DNA from: Lachnospiraceae bacterium
Lineage (GTDB): Bacteria > Bacillota > Clostridia > Lachnospirales > Lachnospiraceae
Reading direction: 5' to 3'
DNA: 64,000 bases
Assembly: GCA_014804365.1 (NCBI GenBank)
Contig: JAAUZX010000067.1
Coordinates: 1-64,000 of the forward strand
Shown here in pieces: positions 45,245 through 57,549 of the stretch (position 1 is its first letter; the number at the start of each line of letters is the position of its first letter). The notes beneath the pieces are model-generated. The model was given only the letters and a program-made list of their open reading frames with translations. It ran no database searches and was not told where the DNA came from. The position numbers and the translations under genes are program-made.

Positions 45245-45332
45245 GGAGAATGCATGCTTTTCGCATTCTCCCAGACATAACTAAGTTATACTTAGGCGGC
45301 GTTCTTTGACGCCTTAGTATAACTTCATGTCT
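45245..45332. repeat. Family 2 structured repeat, copy A
   Basis: Hairpin I GGAGAATGC/GCATTCTCC (45245-45253 / 45263-45271). Outer helix AGACAT/ATGTCT (45273-45278 / 45327-45332) encloses a 16-bp, one-mismatch stem (45283-45298 / 45310-45325). It lies in the 5' leader of the surface-protein gene, just downstream of its -10 box. Confidence 0.75.
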
Positions 45333-45333
45333 T

Positions 45334-45342
45334 ATTATAGCA
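45334..45342 (-). promoter_or_regulatory. Putative extended -10 promoter of the surface-protein gene
   Basis: TGCTATAAT on the minus strand (TATAAT at 45334-45339); no good -35. Transcription from here would place family-2 copy A in the leader RNA. Confidence 0.45.
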
Positions 45343-45408
45343 CAAAATGGTGTTAGCTAGTAGGGCTTTACAGCATTTACAAAATTGGGTCAAATCTTGA
45401 GTCTACGC

Positions 45409-45436
45409 TTGACTTTTCCCAATTTACTGATATACT
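45409..45436 (+). promoter_or_regulatory. Promoter of queT
   Basis: TTGACT (45409-45414), 16-nt spacer, TATACT (45431-45436), about 45 nt before the riboswitch-like structure. Confidence 0.65.
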
Positions 45437-45481
45437 TAGTATCTGGAAAAGTCCATAAATTCAAGGTTTTCCAAAATCTAC

Positions 45482-45524
45482 ACGTCAGTTCGAGACCTTC
45501 CTGACGTAAAACAAAACTAAAGGA
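45482..45524 (+). promoter_or_regulatory. Likely preQ1-I riboswitch
   Basis: A 7-bp stem ACGTCAG/CTGACGT (45482-45488 / 45501-45507) closes a loop starting TTCGAG, and is followed by an A-rich tail AAAACAAAACTAAAGG that runs into the ribosome-binding site. This is the compact layout of class I preQ1 aptamers (stem, TTC-type loop, A-rich tail folding back as a pseudoknot). The tail includes AAAGGAG, so ligand binding would hide the translation start of queT. Confidence 0.7.
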
Positions 45525-45529
45525 GACAA

Positions 45530-53863: not shown

Positions 53864-54727
53864 TTATGATATTGCATTTGCACCTGCAATAATTTCTGTT
53901 AATTCCTGCGTAATAGATCCCTGACGTGCTCTGTTGTACATCAGTGACAAGTGATCTATCATTTCCTCAGCATTGCTTGTCGCGGAATCCATGGCCTGCA
54001 TTCTCGCACCGTTCTCACTGGCGACAGCTTCCACCAAACCGCCGTAGATCAGGCTTGTAACATATTTCGGAATGATCATGTCAAGCGCCTCATCATCTTC
54101 GGGCTCGAAGTTCATCATTGCTTTACTGCCAGTCTCCTTGCCCGCTTCACCATTTTCCGGTGCCTCTACGGGAAGAAGCTTTAACAGAGTCGGCACATGC
54201 ACCACGGTATTCTTAAATCCCGTGTAAGCAAGATAGATCTCATTGATCTCACCCGCGGCATAAGCGTCCAGCAGCTTTTTGCTGATACCCATGGCATCCA
54301 CATAGGACGGTTCCTCGATAATATCCGAGTTTTCTTCCATGATATGATAGCCGTTGCGCTGCAATGCATCCTTGCCTTTCTTGCCGATCGCATATATCTC
54401 CAGATCTTCTTTCTTAAAATCTCCCTTGGTAATCAGCTTGGTAATATTAGAATTATAGCCGCCCGCAAGACCTCTGTTGGAAGTGATCACAATAACCGCC
54501 TTCTTCCCGGATTCTCCTGCCTTCAAGTAAGGGTGATTCAAGCTGCCGGTCTTCGCCAGCATGGAAGACACTGTCTCATACATACAGTTAAAATATGCTT
54601 TCGACTGTTCCGCACGTTGTTTCGCTCTCTGCAGTTTCACGGTAGAAACGAGTTTCATGGCTTTGGTAATCTGCTGAGTACTCTGTATACTGCCTTTACG
54701 CCTTTTAATGTCTCTCATTGAGGCCAT
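53864..54727 (-). CDS. atpG: ATP synthase gamma subunit
   Basis: 287 residues. The N-terminal helix RDIKRRKGSIQSTQQITKAM and the C-terminal helix RARQGSITQELTEIIAGANA form the rotor coiled coil; VIVITSNRGLAGGYNSNI is the conserved central strand. The start MASMRDIKR follows AAGGTGA. Confidence 0.95.
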   Translation of the reverse strand: MASMRDIKRRKGSIQSTQQITKAMKLVSTVKLQRAKQRAEQSKAYFNCMYETVSSMLAKTGSLNHPYLKAGESGKKAVIVITSNRGLAGGYNSNITKLITKGDFKKEDLEIYAIGKKGKDALQRNGYHIMEENSDIIEEPSYVDAMGISKKLLDAYAAGEINEIYLAYTGFKNTVVHVPTLLKLLPVEAPENGEAGKETGSKAMMNFEPEDDEALDMIIPKYVTSLIYGGLVEAVASENGARMQAMDSATSNAEEMIDHLSLMYNRARQGSITQELTEIIAGANAIS

Positions 54728-54756
54728 AGCGTCACCTTCCTCTTTCTCTATTTCTA

Positions 54757-56262
54757 CTATTTAAACTGCGCCTTGAACTCTTCAACGGCCTTGCGAAGTT
54801 TACCGTCTGTCTCCTCGCTAATCTCTTTATCCTGCGCGATTGCACCCGGAACATCCGGATATTTCGTATCCAGGAACTCAAAGAACTCCTTCTCAAATCT
54901 TGTGATGTCTTCTACCGGAACATCCAGCAGATACTTATTCGTCACCACAAATATGATAATTACCTGATACTGTACCGGCATGGGCTGATACTGCGGCTGC
55001 TTCAGGACTTCCTTGATTCTCTCACCCTGTGCCAGTTTCTCCTTCGTATCGGCATCCAGCTCCGAACCGAACTGCGAGAATGCTGCCAGCTCACGATACT
55101 GTGCCAACTCCGTACGAATCGGCGCCGCAATCTTCTTCATTGCCTTGATCTGAGCTGCTCCTCCTACACGGGATACGGAAAGTCCCGCATTAACTGCCGG
55201 TCTGAAACCTGAATTAAACATCTCTGTCTCCAGATAGATCTGTCCGTCTGTGATAGAGATAACGTTAGTCGGAATGTATGCGGATACATCACCCGCCTGC
55301 GTCTCAATGATCGGAAGCGCCGTCAGAGAACCTCCGCCATACTCTTCGCTCATTCTTGCCGCACGCTCCAACAGTCTGGAATGCAGATAGAATACGTCAC
55401 CGGGGTAAGCTTCACGTCCCGGCGGTCTCTTAAGCAGCAAAGAGAGTGTACGGTATGCAGCGGCATGCTTACTCAAGTCGTCATAGACTACCAGCACGTC
55501 CTCGCCGTGCTCCATCCGCTCCTCACCGATCGCACAGCCGGAATACGGAGCAATATACTGTAACGGTGCCAGCTCACTGGCTGTTGCGGCAACTACGGTC
55601 GTATATGCCATCGCACCGTACTCTGTCAAAGTCTTAACAATAGAAGCAACCGTAGATGCTTTCTGTCCTATGGCAACATAGATACATTTAACACCCTGTC
55701 CCTTCTGGTTAATAATCGTATCGATCGCAATCGCCGTCTTACCGGTCTGTCTGTCACCGATGATCAACTCACGCTGACCTCTTCCGATCGGAACCATGGA
55801 GTCGATTGCCTTGATACCTGTCTGCAGCGGTGTATCAACAGATTTTCTTGTAATAACACCGGATGCAACTCTCTCAATCTTACGATATTTATCAGTCTGA
55901 ATCGGTCCCTTGCCGTCAATAGGCTGTCCAAGGGCATTTACGACACGGCCAAGCATACAGTCACCTACGGGAACCTCTACCACTCGTCCCGTAGTCTTTA
56001 CGATATCGCCTTCGTTGATGTTGTTCTGGCTTCCAAGCAGAACGACACCCACGTTATCCTCCTCCAGATTAAGTACCATACCGTAAACCTCGCCGGGGAA
56101 CTCCAGAAGTTCTCCCTGCATGGCATTCTCCAGTCCGTGCACACGAGCTATACCGTCAGCCACCTGAATAACCGTACCCACGTCGGATACTTCCAGGTCT
56201 GAAGCATATCTCTTAATTTGATCCTTAATGACTGAACTAATTTCTTCTGGTCTTAAATTCAT
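54757..56262 (-). CDS. atpA: ATP synthase alpha subunit
   Basis: 501 residues. P-loop [15 protein letters not shown] and the arginine-finger region [15 protein letters not shown] motif ([15 protein letters not shown]) are present, with [15 protein letters not shown]. Non-catalytic nucleotide-binding partner of beta. Confidence 0.97.
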
Positions 56263-56328
56263 GGATCATACGCACCTTTCTTCTTAATTTGAATATAAGC
56301 TCATAGCTTTTCTGCCGAATCCGGCTGA

Positions 56329-56874
56329 TCAGATATGAACTTTTAACAATTCTTTTTGCAGCTCATTTAACTTTGTCCTGATACTGCTGTCCACCACTCT
56401 GTCGCCGATACGGACAACCATACCGCCGATCAGGGCTTCGTCTACCTGAAAATGCATTTCCATCTTCTTATACTGAGTTGTTCCGAGCAGCTTCTGTTCT
56501 ATTTTGCTGCACTGTTCTTCCTTGAGCGGAACAGCCGTCGTCACTGTTGCAACGCCGATCCCCTTATACCGCTTTACCTCCGCAATAAAATAGTCCAGAA
56601 TCTCATCGATATCTCTGTAACGGTCTTTGGAAATGATGATTGTAAGAAATCCGAGCAGTTCATCGGACACCCTGCCTTCAAATACGTTCTTCGCTACCTG
56701 AATCTTCTCTTCGACAATAATCTTGGGATGATTCATCAGTCTGCCGAAAGACTCGTTGTCCGCAAGCACTTTTTGAAGCTGTAGGATTTCTTCTGACAAT
56801 ACATCTATTTTGCCTTCCTCTACCGCAAGCTCAAATAATGCATCTCCATATGTTTTTGAAATTAGCTTAGCCAT
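56329..56874 (-). CDS. atpH: ATP synthase delta subunit
   Basis: 181 residues: N-terminal helical bundle (YGDALFELAVEEGKIDVLS) and the family C-terminal region VVRIGDRVVDSSIRTKLNEL. It forms the peripheral stalk junction. Its start overlaps the end of atpF by 13 nt. Confidence 0.94.
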   Translation of the reverse strand: MAKLISKTYGDALFELAVEEGKIDVLSEEILQLQKVLADNESFGRLMNHPKIIVEEKIQVAKNVFEGRVSDELLGFLTIIISKDRYRDIDEILDYFIAEVKRYKGIGVATVTTAVPLKEEQCSKIEQKLLGTTQYKKMEMHFQVDEALIGGMVVRIGDRVVDSSIRTKLNELQKELLKVHI

Positions 56875-57425
56875 GTGCCCTCACCTATTTCTTTCAACGT
56901 TTCTTCAATCAAACTGTCCTGAACGGTCGTGTCTATCTTAGCACTCACAACTTTACCCGCCATCAGGGATGCCAGAACCACCATTTCGCGCTTCACTTCA
57001 TCAGCGGCTTTCTTCTTCTCCAGCTCTGCTTCCACGCCGGCTCTCTCGATGATCCTCGACGCTTCCTCTTTGGCTTCCGATACGATCTTGTTTTCATTGG
57101 CGAGCGCTTTTTTCCTGGCCTCGCTTAAGATTTCTTCGGCTTCCTTGTCGATCTCTTTCAGCTTGGCTTCGTACTGTTCTTTCAGTGCTCTCGCATTTTC
57201 CATATCGGCTGCAGCGCTGTCAAGCTCGTTTTTGATCCGATCCTGTCTGTTCTGCATCATATCCCTGACAGGATTGAAGAGAAAATGAGAAGCAACCAAA
57301 AACAATGTAAATACCGCAATGATCATCAAAACCGAATCCGCAATCAACTGCAGATCCAGATCAAAAAGTCTTGGTTCCATTTCTGCTGCGGCTGCCATTA
57401 CCATCTGTGTAGCTAATGTACTCAA
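56862..57425 (-). CDS. atpF: ATP synthase b subunit
   Basis: 187 residues: one N-terminal membrane helix (SVLMIIAVFTLFLVASHFLF) then a long charged coiled coil, the peripheral stalk. The start is the TTG at 57425, with AAAGGAGG 8 nt upstream; the next ATG (57404) has no ribosome-binding site. Preceded by a family-2 repeat. Confidence 0.93.
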   Translation of the reverse strand: MSTLATQMVMAAAAEMEPRLFDLDLQLIADSVLMIIAVFTLFLVASHFLFNPVRDMMQNRQDRIKNELDSAAADMENARALKEQYEAKLKEIDKEAEEILSEARKKALANENKIVSEAKEEASRIIERAGVEAELEKKKAADEVKREMVVLASLMAGKVVSAKIDTTVQDSLIEETLKEIGEGTWLS

Positions 57426-57460
57426 GCTCTTATCCTCCTTTCTTCACAATTCTCAGCCCC

Positions 57461-57549
57461 GGAGAATGCACGTTCTTTGCATTCTCCAAGAGATGACTAT
57501 AGCTGCACTTAGGCTGTGTTCTATACAGCCTTAGTGTAACTTCATCTCT
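57461..57549. repeat. Family 2 structured repeat, copy B
   Basis: Hairpin I GGAGAATGC/GCATTCTCC (57461-57469 / 57479-57487); outer helix AGAGATGA/TCATCTCT (57489-57496 / 57542-57549) with C-G swapped to G-C relative to copies A and C; inner stem GGCTGT/ACAGCC. On the minus strand its AG lies in the atpE stop codon TAG (57548-57550); the other end reaches the atpF ribosome-binding site region. Confidence 0.75.

What the first reader, a model, noticed from the sequence alone, without database searches (positions are those of the whole stretch)
45245..57549. Family 2: structured repeat with compensatory changes, three copies
Copies at 45245-45332 (A), 57461-57549 (B) and 52285-52346 (C) share, read on the minus strand, an outer helix (AGACAT or AGAGAT with its complement), an inner stem, a hairpin of GGAGAATGC type and a G-rich tail ending CTGAGA/CTGTGAG. 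Sequence varies but pairing is kept: the outer helix C-G in A and C is G-C in B; hairpin I gains a pair of matched bases in C. Two of the three sit in the ATP synthase operon and one in a surface-protein leader. This pattern fits a small mobile hairpin element or a recurring structured RNA that I do not recognise as a named family.
Basis: partly seen in the sequence, partly recalled or inferred. Interest (0 to 1): 0.75.

Follow-up and report, generated by a model that had tools for sequence, protein, structure and literature searches.

The report
Gut-bacterial DNA hairpin repeat
A roughly 100-letter repeat that folds into two hairpins is scattered through the genomes of a group of gut bacteria, usually placed right at the end of a gene or of a promoter box, and its matching arms seem to be kept complementary at the DNA level rather than because the RNA needs the fold.

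Summary
The three copies are real and belong to a high-copy, unnamed repeat family: 49 sense copies in this genome, matches in 24 of 25 genomes sampled from the genus, in 9 of 118 other genera of the family, and weakly in 1 of 16 other families. Anatomy: hairpin I (outer stem, 3-nt bulge, inner stem with an A.A mismatch, 7-nt loop), then hairpin II and a tail. Stems covary strongly; loop, mismatch and some pairs stay fixed. The covariation is not RNA-like: G.U is no commoner than A.C (21 versus 22 cells), whereas TPP riboswitches of the genus give 60 versus 0; orthologous copies show more double Watson-Crick than single changes. Most copies start within a few bases of a stop codon or a -10-like box, one exactly after the 23S rRNA. 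Occupied and unoccupied sites, tandem and truncated copies occur. I judge it an interspersed DNA-hairpin repeat of the REP/BOX kind, spread by an unknown agent (Y1 transposase is missing from seven copy-rich genomes), its arms matched by template switching or conversion between copies. 'Mobile hairpin' is partly supported; 'recurring structured RNA' is not, though an RNA role is not excluded.

The parts
45245..45332 (-). Copy A, hairpins I and II
   Evidence: 111.5 bits over 45231-45332
45231..45244 (-). Copy A tail GTGGGCTGTGAGAG; similar tails follow other promoter-side copies
45334..45339 (-). TATAAT box, preceded by TGC, one base before copy A; the promoter scan reported no -35/-10 pair here
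45325..45332 (-). Copy A hairpin I outer stem, 5' arm AGACATGA
45273..45280 (-). Copy A hairpin I outer stem, 3' arm TTATGTCT
45281..45283 (-). Copy A 3-nt bulge (TAG here; AAG or ATG in 40 of 57 hairpins of the family)
45301..45307 (-). Copy A hairpin I loop AAAGAAC (48 of 57 hairpins fit ANARNAC)
45245..45271 (-). Copy A hairpin II
57447..57549 (-). Copy B, between atpE and atpF; the atpE stop TAG (57550-57548) overlaps its first two bases
52272..52346 (-). Copy C, between atpD and atpC, hairpin I shortened; the atpD stop TAG (52347-52345) overlaps its first two bases
7174..7277 (-). Fourth copy: hairpin I intact, hairpin II not recognisable; starts directly after a TAG stop
52201..52263 (-). 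Possible degenerate second copy 3' of copy C (weak, E 0.06)

Best explanation
It is an interspersed DNA-hairpin repeat of the REP/BOX kind, about 90-120 bp, non-autonomous. Its fixed features (A.A mismatch, heptaloop, and the pairs beside mismatch and bulge) look like the recognition marks of a factor that binds the folded single strand; that factor, probably what spreads the repeat, is unknown. Copies sit with their 5' end at the edge of a functional unit (stop codon, -10 box, once the 23S rRNA end), in the direction of transcription of the upstream unit. In place, the two arms stay complementary by DNA events, template switching between arms or conversion between copies, while deletions and tandem duplications wear copies down. 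Shown: family, distribution, placement, covariation without wobble bias, hairpins that differ between relatives by bulge or mismatch, sites with and without a copy, tandem and truncated copies. Inferred: mobility, the binding factor, template switching and its direction. Not explained: why the placement is so exact.
For: Copy number and spread. G.U does not clearly exceed A.C: 30/30, 17/17, 31/40, 33/45 in a strict hairpin set, 21/22 in the part of it found by the model alone, 14/19, 16/12, 34/45 with RNAalifold structures, against 60/0 for TPP by that same method. 37 orthologous occupied pairs: 86 double Watson-Crick changes, 37 single (8 GT, 13 AC, 16 other); without three tandem-mixed comparisons and one pair counted on both strands, 64 and 30 (7, 13, 10). 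L346 has a 3' arm that is the exact reverse complement of its 5' arm where L041 keeps bulge and mismatch; L345 lacks only the mismatch; L038 lacks the bulge that L325 has. Unoccupied versions of occupied sites (L322/L333 for L041, L323 for L036, L338 for L048). Tandem copies, 11- and 18-nt arm duplications, truncations. A9, G10, T17, A41, C48, T49 in 57 of 57 and A18.A40 in 51 of 57 while stems vary; most of 20 places in other genera keep these marks.
Against: No mobilising enzyme found: Y1_Tnp is absent from this genome and six other copy-rich ones. No clear target-site duplication at the sites aligned. Several 'empty' sites keep a piece of the 5' arm, so they are deletions, and the clean ones could be complete deletions. 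The exact placement and single orientation would also suit selection on RNA. Some in-place doubles look like replacement by another copy (L031 against L353 also differ in the loop). The genus set has slightly more G.U than A.C (16/12).
Confidence: 0.55

Rival explanations
1. A structured RNA with a host function: the hairpins act in the transcript at its 5' end or right after a stop codon, for example as stability or processing signals between cistrons, as proposed for E. coli REPs within 15 nt of a stop codon.
For: Exact placement at stop codons, -10-like boxes and the 23S rRNA end, in sense orientation; conserved loop and mismatch; by my reading unrelated hairpins occupy the same atpE-atpF and atpG-atpD gaps in other genomes or here.
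Against: No wobble tolerance: G.U about equals A.C against 60/0 for TPP. With TATAAT one base before the element the usual start site would fall inside the outer stem (spacing recalled). The same gap is filled, empty or broken in relatives.
Confidence: 0.25
2. A miniature IS200/IS605-type element or REPIN moved by a Y1 (HUH) transposase, the RAYT model.
For: Imperfect hairpins, oriented insertion, a mostly A-ending 5' flank (133 of 152 contexts), no visible target duplication. Y1_Tnp does occur in 15 of 41 genus genomes, among them copy-rich G003 and G023.
Against: Y1_Tnp is not found in G000, G001, G002, G009, G013 (100% complete, 37 matches), G016 or G017; the flank shows no GTAG. But the CGTC class of REPs also lacks a dedicated transposase (PMC3733652, passages), so absence is not proof.
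Confidence: 0.07
3. Old, vertically inherited palindromes that only decay and are homogenised by recombination, with no present mobility.
For: Several sites are shared within the genus; deletions are common.
Against: High-copy subfamilies in own and related genomes; apparently clean unoccupied sites at TATAAT in relatives.
Confidence: 0.13

Closest known systems
REP / REPIN sequences
   Same: Short imperfect palindromes, many extragenic copies, some close to stop codons: 446 of 4,072 E. coli REPs lie within 15 nt of an upstream stop (PMC12306157, passages read)
   Different: No GTAG tag (PMC3733652, passages, gives GTAG and CGTC as the two classes), two-hairpin unit with a conserved heptaloop, no Y1 transposase in seven copy-rich genomes, closer and more regular abutment to gene ends
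Pneumococcal BOX / RUP / SPRITE repeats
   Same: Mostly under 200 bp, structured, variable tandem modules, insertion into one another; BOX supplies the stop codon of the upstream gene in 36 cases (PMC3049150, passages read)
   Different: BOX and RUP have terminal inverted repeats and target duplications; none seen here. Copies here abut gene ends and -10-like boxes
Hairpins made or kept by DNA template switching
   Same: Double compensatory changes and perfected stems from replication events (PMC8794818, passages read)
   Different: That work treats RNA genes, where two-step changes tend to restore Watson-Crick pairing of G-U pairs; here G.U is not favoured over A.C

Membership tests
Structured RNA (Rfam-type cis element) | Pairing kept with G.U tolerated over A.C | tested here: not met
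   TPP control
Structured RNA (Rfam-type cis element) | Match to a described family | tested here: not met
   0 at gathering in the window; eight matches below gathering scores for the L031 copy at E up to 10
Structured RNA (Rfam-type cis element) | Transcript with the folded form | not testable with these tools
   no RNA data
REP / REPIN | High-copy imperfect palindrome in extragenic DNA | tested here: met
REP / REPIN | GTAG tag at one end | tested here: not met
   5' flank composition over 152 contexts; 5' ends listed; the 3' end was not tested
REP / REPIN | Associated Y1 transposase (RAYT) | tested here: not met
   none in the own genome; 15 of 41 genus genomes, none in seven copy-rich ones
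IS200/IS605-derived miniature element | Oriented insertion 3' of a fixed short target, no target duplication | tested here: inconclusive
   A at -1 in 133 of 152, TAANA in 47 of 152; no duplication seen at the sites aligned
BOX-type repeat | Terminal inverted repeats and target-site duplication | tested here: inconclusive
   none seen in the aligned unit or at the sites, but the exact 3' end is not known
BOX-type repeat | Modular, variable number of internal modules | tested here: inconclusive
   whole-unit and partial tandem copies in G023 and G003
Intrinsic terminator | Stem followed by a run of T on the sense strand | tested here: not met
   no minus-strand terminator-like site at copies A, B or C; one plus-strand site (52278-52294) falls in copy C

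The most novel reading that the evidence does not exclude
The conserved heptaloop, bulge and mismatch mark the substrate of an unknown, non-HUH hairpin-recognising enzyme of Lachnospiraceae that inserts this repeat precisely at the edges of functional units (stop codon, -10 box, rRNA 3' end), a placement more exact than the 'within 15 nt of a stop' known for some REPs.
Probability: 0.25. Interest if true: 0.75.

Novelty: new variant of a known kind. Interest (0 to 1): 0.52.

Why it matters
Strong base-pair covariation is usually read as proof of a functional RNA fold. Here the same signal appears without any clear preference for G.U over A.C, so a simple count separates DNA-level from RNA-level pairing; other candidate RNAs found by covariation alone could be rechecked that way. 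The family is also an unnamed, abundant repeat that reshapes 5' and intercistronic regions, the ATP synthase operon included, across gut bacteria, and its exact placement at gene ends and -10-like boxes asks for an enzyme or a selective rule not yet known.

Tried and rejected
Rfam: nothing at gathering score in the window; eight matches, all below gathering scores, for the L031 copy at E up to 10. RAYT/IS200 mobilisation: made unlikely. Phage carriage: the exact pattern gave 0 in viral contigs. Intrinsic terminator: no sense-strand site at A, B or C. Kink-turn: the bulge is not followed by GA (inspection; motif recalled). A pure TAANA target: only 47 of 152 contexts fit, and the 23S-end copy has AACCAT. 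Paper searches listed no paper that I recognised as describing this repeat; they were few, used my own words, and the library lacks most subscription journals.

Limits. The loci (L159-L274) were chosen by a pattern that fixes part of the loop and stems, so conservation claims use the 57 strict hairpins found by the covariance model in own and genus genomes; these lean to the model, and the strict template assumes a 3-nt bulge. In one search one of five measures (further pair types) was reached by 37 of 500 shuffles. In one search the TPP structure has only 12 pairs, and RNAalifold itself disfavours A.C columns, in both sets alike. In one search the -10 class rests on a short pattern: in L033 and L044 the match is a remnant arm of the repeat, in L091 and L099 it lies in a reading frame. 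The +8 stops can arise wherever an open frame happens to run into the repeat. At L032 the downstream flank of the unoccupied relatives does not align well, so I do not count that site. The own genome is 84.9% complete with 7% contamination.
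Full report
OBSERVATION. The three copies exist as described. A spans 45245-45332, B 57461-57549, C 52285-52346, all read on the minus strand. Each folds into two adjacent hairpins with energies 7.45 to 7.87 standard deviations below shuffles. The Rfam scan of the window returned nothing at gathering scores. B sits between atpE and atpF, C between atpD and atpC, A before a 1560-aa protein with Big_2 and beta-helix domains. The stop codons of atpE and atpD overlap the first two bases of B and C; A follows a TATAAT box by one base, though the promoter scan lists no -35/-10 pair there.

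A LARGE FAMILY. A hairpin-II pattern with up to 3 mismatches gave 47 forward and 45 reverse places in the genome, against 9 and 18 for the pattern read backwards. Fourteen copies were aligned: 97.3% of cells pair, 13 of 34 pairs change on both sides, none of 500 shuffles reaches either value, and sliding the partners drops pairing to 28-44%. A covariance model gave 86 matches at E up to 1 in the genome, opposite-strand shadows included. In the fetched loci (E up to 1e-5), after removing repeats and four shadows, 48 sense copies remain; copy C, not in those loci, makes 49. Weaker matches were not studied. In 41 genomes, 24 of 25 genus members (own included) and 1 of 16 genomes of other families (E 0.01) match at E up to 0.1. 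In 120 genomes of the family over 119 genera, 11 genomes of 10 genera match at 1e-6, own genus included. The same pattern in viral contigs: none.

ANATOMY. In 57 distinct strict hairpins found by the model in own and genus genomes, A9, G10, T17, A41, C48 and T49 are invariant, the A18.A40 mismatch is in 51, 48 loops fit ANARNAC, and the bulge is AAG or ATG in 40, while stems average 68% pairwise identity against 83% for the unpaired core. Of 20 places fetched from eight other genera most keep the mismatch, loop and bulge with unrelated stem sequence; L372 and L382 differ most. These fixed features suggest a sequence-specific binder.

PLACEMENT. Of 170 de-duplicated matches (a few shadows included), the stop of the longest upstream frame ends 2 bases before the repeat in 36, at bases 6-8 of the repeat in 25, 1 base before in 11 and at its first base in 8; 50 have no such frame. 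Among the 48 own copies, 17 follow a -10-like sequence, 20 lie within -5 to +8 of a stop, 3 have the stop further inside and 8 are 'other'. In L033 and L044 the -10-like match is a remnant arm of the repeat, in L091 and L099 it lies in a reading frame. Of the 8 others, L037 (-5), L038 (-17, 11 of them a duplicated arm), L042 (+2) and L094 (-1) are near a shorter frame's stop; L097 starts at base 377 where the 23S rRNA model ends at 376; two are second copies of tandems; L095 is unexplained. For 24 stop-side copies with both neighbours known, the summed distance to the stop is 39 nt against 578 for even placement; 20 of the 24 come from classes defined by closeness and L038 was entered as 6, so this describes rather than tests. 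In L036 the repeat separates a -10 box from a tRNA-Ala gene.

DNA OR RNA. In an RNA helix G.U is tolerated and A.C is not. TPP riboswitches of the same genus (27 of 30 fetched loci; three dropped because the match did not start at base 1501) give 262 Watson-Crick, 60 G.U, 0 A.C and 2 other cells. The repeat by the same method gives 874/14/19/28 (own, 41 sequences), 794/16/12/37 (genus, 28) and 2356/34/45/75 (named, 84). Model-aligned sets give G.U/A.C 30/30, 17/17 and 31/40; strict hairpins 33/45 (132 distinct, pattern-chosen ones included); the model-found part 21/22. Among 37 orthologous occupied pairs there are 86 double Watson-Crick changes, 37 single changes (8 G.T, 13 A.C, 16 other) and 6 two-sided changes that are not Watson-Crick; 9 pairs are identical. 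The pairs are not independent; three comparisons of L091 mix tandem hairpins and L049/L221 is counted on both strands; without these, 64 doubles and 30 singles (7, 13, 10) remain. L049 and L221, with flanks 96-98% identical, differ in hairpin I at one pair, A-T to T-A. The atpE-atpF copies L201 and L226 differ by four doubles and no singles in stems by my reading. L346 has an exact reverse-complement 3' arm where L041 keeps bulge and mismatch, L345 lacks only the mismatch, and L038 lacks the bulge present in L325; that these are corrections rather than older states is inferred. Template switching between arms would leave such marks (PMC8794818, passages); conversion between copies would also give doubles, and L031 against L353 (five doubles, loop changed too) looks like replacement.

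TURNOVER. Sites differ among relatives. L322 and L333 lack the repeat where L041 has it, between TATAAT and AAAACAAG; L323 lacks it at the site of L036, L338 (more distant) at that of L048. Others are deletions that leave part of the 5' arm (L351, L337/L339, L307/L329). At atpE-atpF, of 30 loci the full repeat is seen in L129, L130, L132 and L134, a short form in L131. Full and partial tandem copies occur in G023 and G003; 11-nt arm duplications in L038, L134, L266 and L116, about 18-nt ones in L033, L044 and L274. Copy C is an internally shortened relative of the copy in the same gap of L201. No target duplication was seen.

MOBILISER. The Y1 transposase family is absent from the own genome and found in 15 of 41 genus genomes, copy-rich G003 and G023 among them, but not in copy-rich G001, G002, G009, G013, G016 or G017. 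So a RAYT-type agent is unlikely and the agent is unknown.

VERDICT. A new family of the REP/BOX kind of interspersed repeat, with pairing maintained at the DNA level. Mobility and the binding factor are inferred. The exact placement remains the strangest fact; an RNA role cannot be excluded without transcripts.

Noticed in passing
window 53749-53863: The atpG-atpD gap holds an unrelated palindrome (ACAGTTCAGC ... GCTGAACTGT), while G013 (L118) and G023 (L111) carry the present family in that gap.
   Followed up: partly
L135, L136, L137 atpE-atpF gap: Other genus members carry different hairpin repeats, in tandem, in the same gap, and L139 and L140 small hairpins (by inspection).
   Followed up: no
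L097 377-474: A copy begins exactly after the 23S rRNA 3' end and before a tRNA-Asn, tRNA-Glu, tRNA-Cys cluster.
   Followed up: partly
L116 (G023): The 3' part of the repeat (hairpin II and tail) is itself tandemly repeated with a period of about 70 nt.
   Followed up: no
L126, L127, L128 (G003): Copies lie in what read like ribosomal-protein and fusA operons; L127 has three tandem hairpin I copies with a different second hairpin (genes not searched).
   Followed up: no
L363-L367 (G102): In another genus the unit is followed by a third hairpin whose sequence varies from copy to copy.
   Followed up: no
G023: This 6.1 Mb genome carries 16 Y1_Tnp matches as well as 63 matches of the repeat.
   Followed up: no
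G043 and G060: The listed matches of the two handles are the same, so they appear to be one genome.
   Followed up: no
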